Source: Serendipita indica DSM 11827 (lineage: Eukaryota > Basidiomycota > Agaricomycetes > Sebacinales > Serendipitaceae). Taken from it: a stretch of 64,000 nucleotides of DNA. The notes under the pieces are model-generated. The model ran no database searches, was not told where the DNA came from, and was given only the letters and a program-made list of their open reading frames with translations. The DNA lies in contig CAJVGD010000046.1 in the NCBI GenBank assembly GCA_910890315.1, forward strand, positions 744,001 to 808,000, read 5' to 3'. The translations under genes and the position numbers were made by a program. Positions within the stretch are counted from its first letter, which is position 1, and every line of letters starts with the position of its first letter. Below are positions 22,401-28,840 of this stretch, piece after piece.

Positions 22401-23302
22401 CGGTGAGATCGTAGTATAGCTGAAGCATTCGTAGTGAAATCTGTGCTTGTACATCCAGGTCATTTGGAATCTGTTTCTCGAAGAGTGCGCCGGCAAAGAC
22501 ACGGAACACTTGAAGAAACGGATTGGCGAATCGATCCAGGACGAGGTTGATCATCGTATACAGGTTATCGCTACGAATAGCCGAGCGCCATGGACCACAA
22601 ATCGAATGCGCTGTTTCCAAGATGGCAAGTGTTTGATGGAGTTGAGTTGGCGAAAGTGAGTTGACGAGTTCCTAGGGCAGTCAGATAACGCAATACTAAG
22701 TATGTTTACTCACATCAAACAGAGTTGGCCATTGCGATGGGAAATCTGCGGCTGCGACTAGAGAAACTGACTCCGCAATCTGAGCCCGCAAGGCTTTGTC
22801 GCTAGGTCCAGAGAGCTGAATCATTGCCAGGATGAGGTTTTGTCGTAAGCGTATTTTGTCATCCTCGGGTATAGGTTGAACGTCGTCTTCCGGATCCTAA
22901 TCGAACATAGGTCAGTCCGGCGTTTGGACGGCGTCTGCGAACAAGAAACGTTGCAAGTCGCGGCAAATTATGCTAATCAGATTACTTTAAGAGTCTTGTA
23001 TATAACGTGCTCTCCGTATACTCGCGATCAAGGCACGAATATGTCCGCCACTGAAGATGATTTCACTGTCAAAGGGTACTCAGGCTCACCAGAGTCCATC
23101 GCTTCCGCGCGATATTTTTTAAGTAAACTCCAGAAGAAAGACGGATGGCTCGGTCTTGAGCATTGTCCAATGTGAGCGCGAGTAGGTCAACCGCGAATCC
23201 TGGCTGCAGCGAGGACTGTTCGAGTATTGTTTCCGCCTGTTTACGCGTTTGAGGATCCAAAGATGCTTTGAAAAGCGCAGAAAGTTCGGCAATCGCGACC
23301 AT
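19491..23302 (-). CDS. CSE1: Exportin-2 (Cse1/CAS), importin-alpha re-exporter
   Basis: Many exons on the minus strand encode an all-helical HEAT-repeat karyopherin. The importin-beta N-terminal domain is clear: LFKASLDPQTRKQAE, DRAIRLSSGVYLKNIARKRW, then DPEDDVQPIPEDDKIRLRQ. Cse1-specific stretches follow: AAADFPSQWPTLFDELV, HSICGPWRSAIRSD and LYYDLTAQDLPPIFEDSL. The C-terminal half ends AAQFVQAYMAAGNRF with stop at 19491. Cse1 with RanGTP returns importin alpha to the cytoplasm. I prefer the ATG at 23302, which sits right at the helix start. An in-frame ATG at 23380 would add 26 residues and would overlap the start codon of the divergent neighbour. Confidence 0.92.
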
Positions 23303-23378
23303 TCTTGCTACGTCTGAGAGTGTGGACGAGACAAGGAACACAGGGCGTTGTTTGTCCATTCGCATCTTGGACCCGCTC

Positions 23379-24332
23379 ATGTCTAAGAAACTTCACCTCA
23401 AAGAAACGCCTGTTGAAAGAGAGCAAAGGCTTCGAAAGGAAGAAAGGAGAGCTCGCAAGAAACAGAAACGAGGTCAGCCCGAACTTGGATTCGTCTTCGA
23501 GCACGAGTCTGAAGAACGGCACTGGAGGCTCTCTGAGCCCGAAATATATCGAACTCCAGGAGATGTTGGCGCCTCATATAACTTAGCTGGAAGCTCAGGT
23601 GACACCCCGAATTATGCCGACTATAAGAAGATCGAAAAGGAGCTCGAAGAGGCCAAGTTCAGGGCCAAATTATTCGACGCTATGGACGACGATGAGCGCC
23701 TGGACTCAATAGAGGCGCGCTTTAACGCATATCGTGTCCCAGAGCGCTGGCAGGATTCTCGACAAGCAACGGAGAACCCTAACGAGATGGATGAAGACGA
23801 ATATGCCGAGTGGATACGGAGGGGGATGTGGGAGAAAAAACACCAGCGCGAGATGGAAGAAAGGCGAAGAAAGGAACATGAGGCCGAAGAGCGCAGAGCA
23901 CGCGAGAAGGCTCAACGGCGCGAGATGAGGCGTCTAGAGGAACAAGAGCGTGCAAGGCGCCGTGAAAAGGGCCAACAAGCAATCCAAGACGCATTTGCAT
24001 CCTACCAAGCGTCCTGGGATAGATTGGCCTCAATATCCAATGATGATCGCATACTCACCTATGCCGACATACCGTGGCCCATATCACGAACAGCACCATC
24101 AGATAACGACATTACCATGGACTCAATTGCTCAATTCCTTCTCTCTGAGGCCCACTCTGTTGATAAATCGAAGCGCCGGCGTATTCGAGACGCCCTCTTC
24201 ATCTACCACCCGGATCGGTTCGAAAAGTGGATCTCTATGATCAAGGATGATGCCGATAGGGAGCACGTTCGCGAGACTGCTGGGAAAGTCGTTAGGCTCC
24301 TCAACCTCCTGGCCGACCAGTATTCCTCGTAA
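23379..24332 (+). CDS. NF-kappa-B inhibitor-like 1 (NFKBIL1/IkappaBL) homologue
   Basis: A single exon of 317 residues from the ATG at 23379. A basic, highly charged coiled coil fills the first two thirds (REQRLRKEERRARKKQKR, EERRRKEHEAEERRAREK). The C-terminus has LTYADIPWPISR and, further on, IRDALFIYHPDRFEKW, the YxDIPWP and WHPD(R/K)F signatures of the NFKBIL1 C-terminal domain. No ankyrin repeats are seen, as in other fungal members. The animal protein is linked to mRNA processing; fungal function is not established. The reading frame extends upstream to 23268 but that would run into the Cse1 coding region. Confidence 0.85.
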   Translation: MSKKLHLKETPVEREQRLRKEERRARKKQKRGQPELGFVFEHESEERHWRLSEPEIYRTPGDVGASYNLAGSSGDTPNYADYKKIEKELEEAKFRAKLFDAMDDDERLDSIEARFNAYRVPERWQDSRQATENPNEMDEDEYAEWIRRGMWEKKHQREMEERRRKEHEAEERRAREKAQRREMRRLEEQERARRREKGQQAIQDAFASYQASWDRLASISNDDRILTYADIPWPISRTAPSDNDITMDSIAQFLLSEAHSVDKSKRRRIRDALFIYHPDRFEKWISMIKDDADREHVRETAGKVVRLLNLLADQYSS

Positions 24333-24522: not shown

Positions 24523-25446
24523 TCAAGCCTAGGGGATACTTAGTACCCAGTCTACGGCAGCGATGGATCACTCACTGATTTAGGAGGAGCGGGGCGGCTG
24601 AAAGACGGAGGAGCACCAGAGTGTGCAGGAGGCGTGCCACTTGGAGGGGGAGGAGGCACGAAGCTTCCGGATGGGTGACCGTGAGGAGGCTTCGAGCCAG
24701 ATGGCTTGGGTGGCGGAGGAGATCCACTTGGCTTCTCTTCGCGCTTGGAATGTGCTGGAGGAGTGCCCCTAGGTGGAGGAGGAGGTACAAGGCTGCCTGA
24801 AGGGTGGCCATGAGGAGGCTTTGAGCCAGACGGCTTGGGTGGTGGCGGCAAAGGTGAGCCACTCGGCTTCTCCTCACGCTTAGAATGGGCAGGAGGAGTA
24901 CCACTCGGTGGAGGCGGTGGGACGAAACTTCCAGAGGGGTGTCCATGAGGAGGCTTGATTCCGGAGGGCCTAGGTGGGCGAACGGATCCGCTAGGCTTTT
25001 CCTCGCGCTTAGAGTGGACTGGCGGCGTACCACTTGGAGGGGATGGGGGAACGAAGCTGCCAGACGGATGCTCATGAGGGGGCTTGGACTCGTGAGGAGG
25101 ATGAGGCACAAAGGATGCGCTAGGCTTCTCACGTTTCTATCCCGAGAGATGTCAGCAACTATCTTTCAATAAAGTGAAACCCAGACCTCATGAGGCGGTG
25201 GGAGTGATCCAGTGAAAGACGGCCTTGGAGGACGCGAAAACGAGCCTCCGGGTGGGGGCGGAGGGAACGACAAACTTGCAGGAGCACTGAACGTGGGGCG
25301 AGGTTCAGAAGGAACAGAACCGCTTGGGCGCTGCCTCCTTTCGATCTGCTAAAGCGTCAGAGGGTGTCAAGCAAGCTCTAAGGACGTACCGGGCTGGCGC
25401 TGGCAACAGCGAGAACGCAAAGAGTGACGAAGGTCTTCCAGTACAT
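24523..25446 (-). CDS. Secreted Pro/His-rich repeat protein with Lys-Arg sites (Kex2-processed repeat type), member 1
   Basis: Four exons: 25446-25390, 25345-25187, 25136-24576 and a 6-nt last exon 24528-24523, total 260 residues. If the last intron is not spliced, the frame stops at 24552 instead. Exon 1 is exactly the signal peptide MYWKTFVTLCVLAVASASP. The body has four ~43-residue repeats of the pattern EEKPSGS..PPHGHPSGSFVPPPPP..GTPPAHSKR. Three HSKR or VHSKR sites separate the units, and EKRE opens the first; Lys-Arg is the Kex2 signal. This matches the layout of fungal Kex2-processed repeat proteins, which release several similar peptides. I see no cysteine in the repeats and no known peptide name. 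A TATA box lies at 25511-25517. Confidence 0.75.
24590..25136 (-). repeat. Four tandem ~130-bp coding repeats
   Basis: Within exon 3 of the repeat protein, a unit of about 126-135 bp occurs four times. The second to fourth copies are the most alike. Length differences are whole codons in the proline run, so the frame is kept. Confidence 0.8.
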
Positions 25447-25510
25447 GTCTAATGTGTGCTGTCTTTCAAGGTCGAGCTTGACTGCAGTTTGGTCGAGCTG
25501 GAGTCACTGC

Positions 25511-25517
25511 CTTTATA
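25511..25517 (-). promoter_or_regulatory. TATA box of repeat-protein member 1
   Basis: TATAAAG on the minus strand, about 65 bp before the ATG at 25446, in the context GCAGCTATAAAGG. Similar boxes precede members 2 and 3 at comparable distances. Confidence 0.5.
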
Positions 25518-26834
25518 GCTGCCAGTGGGCACTCTCGGAAAGATATTTTGGCTTACGGAGCGACTTTATCCCGCGAAGTATGCATCCTGAAGCTTTGGAA
25601 GAGGAATGGCGGTCACTACGACTGGCTAGCCCGGTCCTTTACGGACTTCAAGTTTGATCTATGCGCAATGAATTCATTTCAGAAGTCTCAAGCGAAGTTC
25701 GAAGAATGAGTAATAGTCTCCCGAAGGTAATGCAACCGTGCGCTTCGTTTGGCGTTTCGACAGACCCAGTGACGATGGCGTTCTTGCAATTTTTAGAGTC
25801 CGCCTTTTTGCATTGATACTCCTCCTCCTTCTCCGCAGCCCCCGCAGCACGAATGCGATCCTGCATGCACCGGAGGAGCCTTCCACGGTGGTTCCTGGGA
25901 GTAATCGAACGAGCCGGTGGGGAAGCGCCAAAGCTGAATGAATTGCACCAGAATCCATCCGGTCAGTCATTGGTCACCAGCGCGGAGGAATATGCGGACC
26001 GCAAGCGACGTGACGGGAAATTGAATGGCCACTGAGCTAAATGTCAAAGTATGCTTCTATGGTCCGCAGCAGTCGAGATTGACCCTTGTAAGTCTTTGCG
26101 GTCCCGCTCAGTCAGTGGCAAAAAGGACGACTAGCCGAAGGACTCATCGATGTGTGAACAATTGACGTCTAAGGACAATTTTAACTAGATTGGATCTGTG
26201 CTGACAGAAAATAGGGATAACGAGGCCTGAATACGGACGGGGCCCTGCTGTGCTTTTTCGGTGCAGCCTCATTTGAACAAGCAGGGTCATTGCGAATCTT
26301 CCGAGCAGTTCCCACTGTTTGAGTTTTCATAAATAGCACATAGAGGAAGCTTCCGTAAGCCAGCGAAAAGTTGAAAGGAGTGATCCGTTATGCAGCATTA
26401 CGCCAAGTCATGGCGTGATTTGAGGCAATCATAGAATCCATATGATCAAATTCGAATACGTCTGTGCTTTACAGACCGCCATAAGTGCCTACCGCAAGCG
26501 CGTACATGAACCATGCATTACATCCAAAAAGGGCGGAATTACTGCGCTTTGCACCTAACTAAGTTACTTTGATGTGAAGGAGGAGAAAACTATATGGAAT
26601 TTGAAGCGAGTGAAGTCTTCAACACAGCTCTCCAAGTATTTCTACAGAACCACGACGAGTACCTCTCACTTCCATCCGATAGATGCGGAAAGCGAAGGGG
26701 GTTTCAAGGGACTACATTGCAGTCATGAATTTCTACTTGCTATTTGTGACACCAAATGGGTATGGGCTCTCACTCTCAAAAGAACACGGCGTGTATCACT
26801 TGTTTCTGTGGCAGATAATTTTTTCGGACTCCCA
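25518..26834. other. Intergenic between repeat-protein members 1 and 2
   Basis: About 1.3 kb with only short open frames on both strands. The longest (minus strand 25970-25674 and an overlapping frame) contain no family I recognise and no signal peptide. I see no further copy of the PSGSF repeat here. Confidence 0.4.
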
Positions 26835-27381
26835 TTAGATCGTCGTCTGTAAGCAAGGCGTAAATGGAATGACAGTCTGCGAGCAAGAATTACCTGATCA
26901 GGAGATGGAGTGGGATCGCTGCTTGAAGGCTGAGGGAACGTTGGGAAGGAGAAGCTCTCGGGGGGCTGCGGGAGCGAAAAGCTATCGGATGGTTGAGGAA
27001 ATGAAAAGCTAATGGACGGCTGAGGGGACGATGGGAATGAAAAAGTTCCGGATGGTGGTGGAAACGAAGGAAAAGAGAAGCTGCCGGACGGTTGCGGAAA
27101 CGAAGGAAAGGAAAAGCCCCTGAAGGTTGAGGGAATGGAGGGAATGAAAAGCTCCCAGATGGAAAAGAGAAACTTTCAGTGGGCCCAGGGAAGCTAAACG
27201 AGCGACTCGGGAACTGAGTTACCTGTAAGCACCAGTATCGCACGAGACTCAGCACATACTTGTCTCTTGTCCTGAATCTACCGGAAATCGATGAGTCGTC
27301 GACTGTGGGATCAGTTGTACGCACTGGAACAGCAGTGGTGGCGGCGACCGCACAGAAAGCGAGGAGGACCTTGAGCTGCAT
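26835..27381 (-). pseudogene. Secreted Ser/Phe/Pro-rich repeat protein, member 2, with a frameshift
   Basis: Exon 1 (27381-27325) encodes a 19-residue signal peptide MQLKVLLAFCAVAATTAVP and ends after Pro19 at a GTGCGT donor, as in members 1 and 3. The repeat exon carries short units of the type PSGSFSFPSFPQ. The first units are in one frame (SFSFPGPTESFSFPSGSFSFP), the later ones (from about 27117 downward) in the next frame. A one-base loss in the GGGGC run near 27117-27120 would explain it, since other copies read GGxAGC. Downstream the second frame runs cleanly into a donor at 26893 and a last exon 26846-26835 (TTI-stop). The internal exon borders between 27325 and 27200 are unsettled. 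It could be a young pseudogene, a haplotype variant or a base-call error. Confidence 0.6.
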
Positions 27382-27436
27382 GGGGACTGGCACGGGGATC
27401 CAACGAGGATGAGTTCGCAGACAGTGTGAGTGCAGT

Positions 27437-27444
27437 CTTTTATA
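27437..27444 (-). promoter_or_regulatory. TATA box of repeat-protein member 2
   Basis: TATAAAAG on the minus strand, about 56 bp before the ATG at 27381, within CACAGTATAAAAGACTGCA. Confidence 0.5.
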
Positions 27445-28261
27445 CTGTGAGCGCACTTGCTCCCGTTGCATACCATTTGGAGCCAAATATAACGTGGTCA
27501 GTACTGTCGGACACTTTGTAACCAAGTTCAGAAGTGCGGAAGTCAATACTCGGTGGCAAAGAACAGTGAGCCCGAAAGAAGCTAGAGTAATTAGAGCATG
27601 TCAACGCCTTGCAATATTGCAACAGAAAACGTTCGACTGTGGAGAGCTAAAGATCATTTTGGGATTTGAAAATAGCCTGCAACAGGGAAAGGATGCTACC
27701 CGGCTTCTCGAATTACTGAAGACGATCACACATTGTCAAGGCCGCAACCGATCCATCCCTTGGATAAAAACCAGGTTGCTAGAGTGGAAGAATGTTGATT
27801 ACGAGAGGCTCGAGAGGAAATAGGCATCCGAAGGAATGGCAACGTGAAATACTCGCTTTCATTTTGTTGCCCAACGAGGACAGGTCCAAATTATAGAAGC
27901 CGAAGAGGCCCGACCTCTATCCGAATTATCGGACCAGATCCAATAGGAATGTTGGAGTATCAGCTTACTGAGGTTTTACCTTCTGGACGCATTTGACACC
28001 GTTGTATGAGCATTGGGATACAGGACAGTCATCAAGATGTACTATTTCAAGATGGAGTAGGGTCGTCCAGCTCTTAGTCGGGACTCTTATTCTCTCTACC
28101 TACTTCGTCGATGTAAGCACCAGTCTCTACGACCATGAATGAGGGAGCCTCAGATAAGCATGCGGGACAGATTCGAGTATATTCCTACATTCCACAAGGG
28201 TATATGTCTCATGGCACGAGCTGAGGCCTGCGGAAAAGCTAAACAAGGAGTATCCTCGCAT
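27445..28261. other. Intergenic between repeat-protein members 2 and 3
   Basis: About 800 bp. A plus-strand frame at 27494-27823 (109 codons) is open but has no recognisable motif and overlaps the promoter side of member 2. I do not call it. Confidence 0.35.
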
Positions 28262-28840
28262 TTAGGCGGTCTAGAAGATTGTGAGCGGGAGGCTTGGAAT
28301 TTTAAGTAATGCTCACATGAATGGGAGGACGAGAGGTGGATCCAGATGGAGCCGGATGAGATGCACTTCCCGAGGGCGCACCTGGATGAGATACGTTACC
28401 AGGAGGAGCTGGGTGAGATACACTGCCAGAAGGATGAGGAGGCACTACTGTGCCCGAAGGATGAGGGAATGAAAAACTACCCGACGGATGAGGGAACGAA
28501 AAGGTGCCCGGAGGGAGATGCGTTCCGGAAGGATGTGGATGAGAGGCACCACCGGAAGGGTGGGGGAAAGAGAAGCTTCCCGAAGGGTGAGGGAAAGAGT
28601 GGCTTCCAGAGGGAGCCGGATGGGAGCTGGAGCTGGCTGGAGCCTATGGTCAACTTTAGTATGGCTCCAAGTATCAGAACACGTGAGTTATACCGAATGA
28701 GAAGTTCCACCAGGACGAGTAGCAGAGCTCGTGAGAATCTAGCGCATAGGTCAAGCATGTCACAGTAAAAATGGTGTGCGTACTGGACTGGAGCTGGCAA
28801 CAGCGACGAGGCAAAGAGCAAAGAGGGTGCTGAAGTGCAT
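28262..28840 (-). CDS. Secreted His/Pro/Ser/Gly-rich repeat protein, member 3
   Basis: Exons 28840-28784, 28643-28317 and 28270-28262 give 130 residues; without the last splice the frame stops at 28302. Exon 1 is the signal peptide MHFSTLFALCLVAVASSSP, closely similar to member 1. The mature part is a chain of 8-10-residue units such as HPSGSFSFP, HPSGGASHP, HPSGTHLPP, HPSGSVSHPA and APSGSASHP, with no cysteine. Unlike member 1 there are no Lys-Arg sites in the repeats. The 140-nt first intron is longer than usual, so another small exon could be hidden in it. His-Pro-rich secreted proteins can bind metals or act in the wall; here function is unknown. Confidence 0.65.

What the first reader, a model, noticed from the sequence alone, without database searches (positions are those of the whole stretch)
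24523..28840. Tandem cluster of three secreted repeat proteins with one shared gene plan
Three same-strand genes in 4.3 kb each begin with a 57-nt exon encoding a 19-residue signal peptide ending in Pro. Each has a phase-0 intron directly after that Pro codon, repeats built on PSG(S/T)x and Pro, a plausible tiny last exon (6, 12 and 9 nt) and a TATA box 56-78 bp before the ATG. The mature repeats differ greatly (43-residue units with HGHPSGSFVPP; PSGSFSFP; HPSGSFSFP). So the secretion and promoter module is kept while the peptide part diverges quickly, which looks like a young, fast-changing secreted-peptide family.
Basis: partly seen in the sequence, partly recalled or inferred. Interest (0 to 1): 0.75.

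Follow-up and report, generated by a model that had tools for sequence, protein, structure and literature searches.

The report
Root-fungus cluster of secreted peptide precursors
Three neighbouring genes of a plant-root fungus share one start module; one of them is an unusually well-conserved precursor that the fungus probably cuts into four secreted peptides of about 40 residues, a known kind of gene whose function in such fungi is mostly unknown.

Summary
The genome fits the root endophyte Serendipita indica. Three minus-strand genes A, B and C share a 57-nt signal-peptide exon with a phase-0 donor and fit a four-exon plan. (1) Gene A is a Kex2-processed repeat protein (KEP): KR sits at every unit boundary and published screening criteria are met; two kexin-type loci exist. 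(2) Gene B's PSGSF repeats lie in two frames; 0 of 75 open splice models keep the 5' ones. 'Young, fast-changing' fails for the array of A: codon differences at identical residues (124 of 204) equal random reassignment (126.8 +/- 5.6), yet units keep 71-95% amino-acid identity. The array is old and under purifying selection. The 'kept promoter' is only a TATA box. My searches found no further copies, but they were insensitive. Best explanation: a tandem family in which A releases four ~40-residue Pro/Ser/Gly/His peptides, and B and C are related secreted low-complexity proteins. New member of a known kind.

The parts
25390..25446 (-). Gene A exon 1: 57 nt, signal peptide MYWKTFVTLCVLAVASASP, phase-0 donor GTACGT
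   Evidence: only three such exons pass the window scan
25187..25345 (-). Gene A exon 2: begins IERRQRPSGS (RR = possible Kex2 site after a short propeptide) and a degenerate N-terminal unit, 38-48% identical to the four units
   Evidence: the donor of the following intron is weak (GTCTGG; GTTTCA six bases on is an alternative in phase, read)
24576..25136 (-). Gene A exon 3: KR-bounded array of four units (42, 43, 45 residues, then 41 plus a 15-residue tail that includes the last exon's Ala)
   Evidence: saturated synonymous sites, conserved protein
24523..24528 (-). Gene A putative 6-nt last exon (Ala-stop)
   Evidence: unproven, reading through also ends after 7 residues
25512..25517 (-). 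TATAAA, 71 nt before the ATG of gene A
27325..27381 (-). Gene B exon 1: 57 nt, MQLKVLLAFCAVAATTAVP, phase-0 donor GTGCGT
27260..27277 (-). Gene B proposed exon 2: IQDKRQ (KR = possible Kex2 site), parallel to IERRQR of gene A
   Evidence: inferred from splice signals
26894..27213 (-). Gene B repeat exon: PSGSFSFP-type repeats in two reading frames, changing near 27117-27120 (G4 run)
26835..26846 (-). Gene B putative 12-nt last exon (TTI-stop), in phase with the 3' frame only
27439..27444 (-). TATAAA, 63 nt before the ATG of gene B
28784..28840 (-). Gene C exon 1: 57 nt, MHFSTLFALCLVAVASSSP, phase-0 donor GTACGC
28694..28738 (-). Gene C proposed exon 2: ILTSSATRPGGTSHS, no dibasic site
   Evidence: inferred from splice signals
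28317..28643 (-). Gene C exon 3: HPSGSFSFP-type repeats, no dibasic site
28262..28270 (-). Gene C putative 9-nt last exon (TA-stop)
   Evidence: unproven, reading through also ends after 4 residues
28920..28925 (-). TATAAA, 85 nt before the ATG of gene C

Best explanation
A tandem family of three secreted repeat-protein genes in Serendipita indica or a very close relative. Shown by sequence: a shared 57-nt leader exon and the possibility of one four-exon plan; KR at each unit boundary in gene A; old and constrained repeats in A. Inferred: gene A is a Kex2-processed repeat protein. Signal peptidase removes the leader; the Golgi kexin cuts after RR/KR; Kex1 trims the basic ends; four peptides of roughly 40-43 residues, rich in Pro, Ser, Gly and His and probably unfolded or polyproline-like, are exported (the fourth carries a 15-residue C-terminal tail). 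B (if functional) and C share the leader and the PSG chemistry but lack repeat-bounding KR sites, so they would be exported as whole disordered PSGSF-type proteins of the hyphal surface or matrix. The likeliest role is at the hyphal surface or hypha-root interface rather than mating. That role is the least supported step.
For: Gene A: four KR plus one RR (shuffle mean 0.87 KR, 43 of 5,000 shuffles reach 4). All 6 pairs among the four units pass the 70%-identity KEP criterion. Purifying selection with synonymous saturation. Two loci with P_proprotein and S8 domains; the one compared with solved structures, L054, matches yeast Kexin at E 1.6e-83. Shared exon 1. KEPs are common in Basidiomycota, mean 5.30 per strain (PMC7329392, abstract as shown), and KEP-derived peptides were detected in four agaricomycetes (PMC9769878, abstract). 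Organism.
Against: No transcript or peptide data. B and C have no repeat-bounding dibasic sites, so the family as a whole is not a KEP family. The mature parts do not link A to B or C in sequence searches: A's repeat exon found only itself at E 0.01, C's only itself, and B's 3' half found C only at E 0.0106; kinship rests on exon 1 and the gene plan. B changes frame in this assembly. Intron 2 of A has a weak donor. No relatives from other species could be searched. The surface role is inference from composition (P+G 43% in A, 34% in C, 28% in the 3' frame of B); the single-sequence model of exon 3 of A had mean pLDDT 57 and says little.
Confidence: 0.68

Rival explanations
1. All three are uncut, intrinsically disordered surface or matrix proteins (polyproline-like, self-assembling), analogous to the AGP-like proteins of arbuscular mycorrhizal fungi; the KR pairs of gene A are merely part of its repeat.
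For: P+G content 28-43%; B and C lack repeat-bounding dibasic sites; PMC8786786 passages say Rhizophagus AGLs can form polyproline II helices and that peptides from their repeats self-assemble in vitro.
Against: KR lies at each unit boundary of A and is kept while synonymous sites are saturated; kexin-type loci are present.
Confidence: 0.2
2. The peptides of gene A act on the host root as mimics of plant secreted peptides or of hydroxyproline-rich wall proteins.
For: Root endophyte with many secreted effector candidates (PMC3192844; PMC3708536). The stretch KPSGSKPPHGH in units 3 and 4 loosely recalls plant CLE motifs (recalled, not tested).
Against: The resemblance is short and low-complexity; the stretch is internal to the unit and not at a processed end (units end GTPPAHS or GTPPVHS before KR). 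No expression data.
Confidence: 0.07
3. A cyclised, modified KEP product of the dikaritin/ustiloxin type.
For: Same precursor architecture: signal peptide and KR-separated units.
Against: No UstYa (PF11807) match in this genome (its 14 controls were silent too, so absence is not proven). Units are about 40 residues. PMC7329392 finds DUF3328 neighbours for 103 of 1680 (6.1%) basidiomycete KEPs.
Confidence: 0.03
4. Decaying or spurious repeat ORFs rather than working genes.
For: Gene B changes frame inside its repeats; low-complexity sequence.
Against: Third-position-dominated divergence in all three arrays (for B only the 3' frame was tested) and strong purifying selection in A; leader and splice signals in all three.
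Confidence: 0.05

Closest known systems
Kex2-processed repeat proteins (KEPs; Le Marquer 2019, Umemura 2020, Vogt 2022)
   Same: Leader, at least three similar units separated by KR, kexin-type loci present, under 800 residues (gene A)
   Different: Units of 42-45 residues are longer than the 9-24 residue class that PMC6339444 reports as the most abundant in Dikarya other than yeast-like Basidiomycota; sits beside two leader-sharing genes without repeat-bounding Kex2 sites
Rep1 repellent protein of Ustilago maydis
   Same: Kex2-cut precursor with peptides of 35-53 residues (PMC4617103, passages)
   Different: Rep1 peptides are amphipathic and form amyloid-like fibrils; gene A units are Pro/Ser/Gly/His-rich and unlikely to form amyloid (inference); no sequence comparison was made
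AGP-like (AGL) proteins of arbuscular mycorrhizal fungi
   Same: P/G-rich disordered tandem repeats in root symbionts; GpRIC proteins discussed in the same paper carry KR (PMC8786786, passages)
   Different: Different repeats and a different phylum; likely convergent (inference)
DELD (RSIDELD) effector family of S. indica
   Same: Same genome; secreted family with a conserved leader exon and a mostly fixed donor position
   Different: Donor-like site at nt 71, phase 2, in 9 of 13 leaders found, not nt 57, phase 0; RSIDELD end, absent here

Membership tests
KEP (gene A) | N-terminal signal peptide | tested here: met
   Hydrophobic 19-residue leader that passes my crude filter; SignalP was not run
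KEP (gene A) | At least two dibasic sites and one unit similar (70% or more) to at least two others, under 800 residues | tested here: met
   5 sites; 6 of 6 pairs of the four units at 70-91% identity; 260 residues. Criteria from PMC9769878
KEP (gene A) | Kex2-type protease in the genome | tested here: met
   Two loci with P_proprotein and S8 domains; L054 best PDB match Kexin
KEP (gene A) | Peptides released in vivo | not testable with these tools
   Needs peptidomics
KEP (genes B and C) | KR/RR between repeats | tested here: not met
   C has none; B's 5' half has one before the repeats, its 3' half none
Dikaritin (ustiloxin-type) | UstYa/DUF3328 modifying enzymes | tested here: inconclusive
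   No match in the genome, but the 14 control genomes were silent too
DELD effectors | C-terminal RSIDELD | tested here: not met
   Predicted C-termini KSA, TTI, HTA; none of the 18 RSIDELD sites lies on contig C44
Rep1-type repellents | Amphipathic, amyloid-forming units | not tested
   Judged unlikely from composition only

The most novel reading that the evidence does not exclude
Gene A is an old, strictly conserved peptide-messenger precursor of a mutualistic root endophyte. Its four ~40-residue peptides are released by kexin and act at the root interface, possibly on plant receptors, while leader-sharing neighbours that have no cutting sites between repeats became whole matrix proteins. 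One leader module would then serve both a peptide-messenger line and a structural line.
Probability: 0.1. Interest if true: 0.72.

Novelty: new member of a known kind. Interest (0 to 1): 0.42.

Why it matters
KEP functions are mostly unknown: the abstract of PMC9769878 says so, and reports no detectable phenotype for kep knockouts in Coprinopsis cinerea. A KEP whose unit peptide is conserved against saturated synonymous change is a good candidate for a specific function, and a root mutualist offers a testable setting. One might expect such an array to be young or kept alike by recombination; here neither holds. Rafiqi et al. 2013 (PMC3708536; part 1 of 3 read, passages) count 110 repeat-rich small secreted proteins without Pfam domains in this fungus and report no evidence for clustering (in their sense, which leans on MCL tribes); this is a physical cluster of three.

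Tried and rejected
Paralogues elsewhere in the genome: protein searches with the bodies of A, C and both halves of B found only places inside the cluster. They are insensitive: A's search did not find B or C, and C's did not find A or B. A 73-base query from C's leader exon matched only itself and did not recover A's leader. A diverged fourth member could therefore have been missed. The motif pattern P-[ST]-G-[ST]-F..P gave 29 sites against 22 for its control, so most single sites are chance. 8 lie in the cluster; of the other 21 I read 10 (L034 gave no readable frame, L027 shows a PSG-rich linker in a longer frame), and none showed an array like those here; 11 were not read. One lead, L020 (AHPTGSFVPP), showed no signal-peptide exon that I recognised in the three frames of that strand.

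Active codon diversification between the units of A: rejected; 124 of 204 against 126.8 +/- 5.6 is plain saturation. Arrays C (136 of 210 against 146.5 +/- 4.7) and B 3' (36 of 59 against 44.0 +/- 2.2) keep some common DNA ancestry, so the saturation claim is for A alone.

A 54-nt cryptic intron that might reconcile the frames of B: rejected, its length is a multiple of three. Of 75 one- or two-intron models that keep an open frame to the last exon, 0 keep the 5' PSGSF repeat and 54 keep the 3' repeats; 9 have donors of the form GT[AG]NG, and these end in GAAAG or GGGAG without a branch-like site before the last acceptor. Three-intron models with restricted donors gave 6 more, all skipping most of the array. 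So B either has a frame break (or an assembly error), or its 5' repeats are intronic; I prefer the former.

Structure prediction of exon 3 of A was uninformative. Literature searches for the motifs PSGSF/HPSGS (81 papers, 20 listed, no listed title relevant), 'Serendipita indica' with Kex2, 'Serendipita' with KEX2-processed repeat, repeat and proline-rich secreted proteins (312 papers, 20 listed) and repeat-containing small secreted proteins showed no description of these genes in the listings and passages seen; supplements could not be read, so the genes may be listed there.
Full report
Where it is. The window lies in a 24.7-Mb genome of 55 contigs. A pattern for RSIDELD-stop, the signature of a secreted family described from Piriformospora (now Serendipita) indica, gives 18 exact sites and 0 for the reversed control. 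Zuccaro et al. 2011 (PMC3192844, passages) give 24.98 Mb, 50.68% GC, 25 proteins with this motif and 4 truncated ORFs. The source is therefore most likely S. indica or a very close relative (Sebacinales).

Anatomy. On the minus strand, A (25446-24523), B (27381-26835) and C (28840-28262) each open with 57 nt coding for 19 residues that end in Pro, followed by a phase-0 donor. My models have four exons each: 57/159/561/6 nt for A, 57/18/320/12 for B and 57/45/327/9 for C, with introns of 44-50 nt. As modelled, all three introns of A and C and the first two of B are phase 0; B's repeat exon changes frame inside. The second exons of A and B start with a parallel stretch, IERRQRPSGS and IQDKRQ|FPSRS, that is, a short propeptide with a dibasic site. 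C has ILTSSATRPGG there and no dibasic site. The introns and tiny last exons rest on splice signals only; intron 2 of A has a weak donor.

Common descent. Exon 1 of A and C is identical at 42 of 57 bases, and no codon-order shuffle out of 20,000 reaches the observed value; B-C (33/57, p 0.0003) and A-B (30/57, p 0.0032) are weaker. Signal peptides have position-specific composition, so these p values are somewhat optimistic. Only these three sites in the window pass the leader filter, which was set after seeing them. The DELD family of the same genome has its own leader exon: of 18 loci, 13 gave a leader by my pattern; 9 of these 13 have a donor-like site at nt 71, phase 2; 2 have one only at nt 94; 2 show none; 6 of 13 have a TATA-like site, at 100-120 nt. 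So the 57-nt phase-0 plan is not simply the genome's default. The 200-bp upstream regions of A, B and C show no similarity above shuffles. The mature parts do not find each other in genome searches, apart from B's 3' half finding C at E 0.0106, so kinship rests on exon 1 and the gene plan.

Gene A is a KEP by architecture. With the leader taken as residues 1-17, cutting at dibasic sites gives fragments of 6, 51, 42, 43, 45 and 56 residues. All 6 pairs among the last four reach 70-91% identity, and the 51-residue piece is a degenerate unit at 38-48%. This meets the screening criteria in PMC9769878 (section read) and the architecture described in PMC6339444 (passages); their own pipelines were not run. 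Two loci on contig C1 carry proprotein-convertase P and S8 domains; the S8 frame of L054 matches yeast Kexin at E 1.6e-83. C has no dibasic site. The 5' half of B has one, before its repeats, and the 3' half has none. Pfam has no match for A or C.

Age and selection. Between the four units of A, pS is 0.66-0.88 and pN 0.02-0.19; units 3 and 4 differ by 22 synonymous and 2 non-synonymous changes over 41 codons. At 204 aligned identical residues over all unit pairs, 124 codons differ; random reassignment of the same codons gives 126.8 +/- 5.6. Codon choice thus keeps no trace of the units' common origin, while the protein keeps 71-95% identity. The array is old, not homogenised, and held by purifying selection on the peptide. 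The arrays of C and of B's 3' frame also differ most at third codon positions (94/105/217 and 8/16/50 differences at positions 1/2/3) but keep some DNA ancestry. Exon 1 of A and C shares 8 of 10 codons at identical residues (B-C 5 of 7, A-B 2 of 6; Met counted). For A-C this is fewer differences than the repeat units show, which suggests the leader was shared more recently than the units of A diverged, for example by gene conversion or exon exchange; the numbers are too small to prove it.

Gene B. The repeat exon is 320 nt. Repeats run from the 5' frame (FPSRSFSFPGPTESFSFPSGSFSFPPFPQPSG) into another frame (GFSFPSFPQPSGSFSFPSFPPPSG...), the change lying near a G4 run, 27117-27120. Of 75 one- or two-intron models that stay open to the last exon, 0 keep the 5' PSGSF repeat; the 9 with ordinary donors use acceptors GAAAG or GGGAG. 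Either the assembly has a homopolymer error, or this allele is broken, or the 5' repeats are intronic; reads and cDNA would decide.

Mechanism. Shown: leader, repeats, dibasic sites, kexin-type loci, selection. Inferred: kexin and Kex1 processing of A into four peptides of about 40-43 residues (plus a tail on the last), and export of C, and of B if functional, as whole disordered proteins. The role at the hyphal surface or root interface is inferred from composition and lifestyle. The closest working analogues are Rep1 (peptide size and processing; PMC4617103, passages) and the AGP-like proteins of mycorrhizal fungi (P/G-rich repeats that form polyproline II helices and self-assemble in vitro; PMC8786786, passages).

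Novelty. KEPs are a known class: 7878 were detected in 1345 of 1461 fungal strains (PMC7329392, abstract as shown). I saw no paper describing these three genes (searches), but supplementary tables could not be read. The notable parts are the saturated-synonymous but conserved array, and a KEP beside leader-sharing genes that have no cutting sites between their repeats.

Noticed in passing
L053 and L054 (contig C1, about 970,800 and 951,700): Two closely similar kexin-type protease loci about 19 kb apart on opposite strands; each has S8 and P_proprotein domains in ORF pieces. Duplicate or assembly copy not resolved.
   Followed up: partly
27117-27120: Change of frame inside the PSGSF repeats of gene B near a G4 run.
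   Followed up: yes
23253-24332: Plus-strand open frame of 359 residues ending about 190 bp from gene A, charged, with an HPD-containing stretch near its end; no Pfam match at E 0.01.
   Followed up: no
L002 and L003 (contig C5): Two RSIDELD-ending loci about 1.5 kb apart whose terminal open frame is only 17 residues (HGSKIGIHVPRSIDELD / HGSRIGIHVPRSIDELD); in the other 16 loci it is about 50 or more.
   Followed up: no
25390-25446 and 28784-28840: Exon 1 of A and C keeps the same codon at 8 of 10 identical residues although the units of A are synonymously saturated: possible later exchange of the leader exon.
   Followed up: partly
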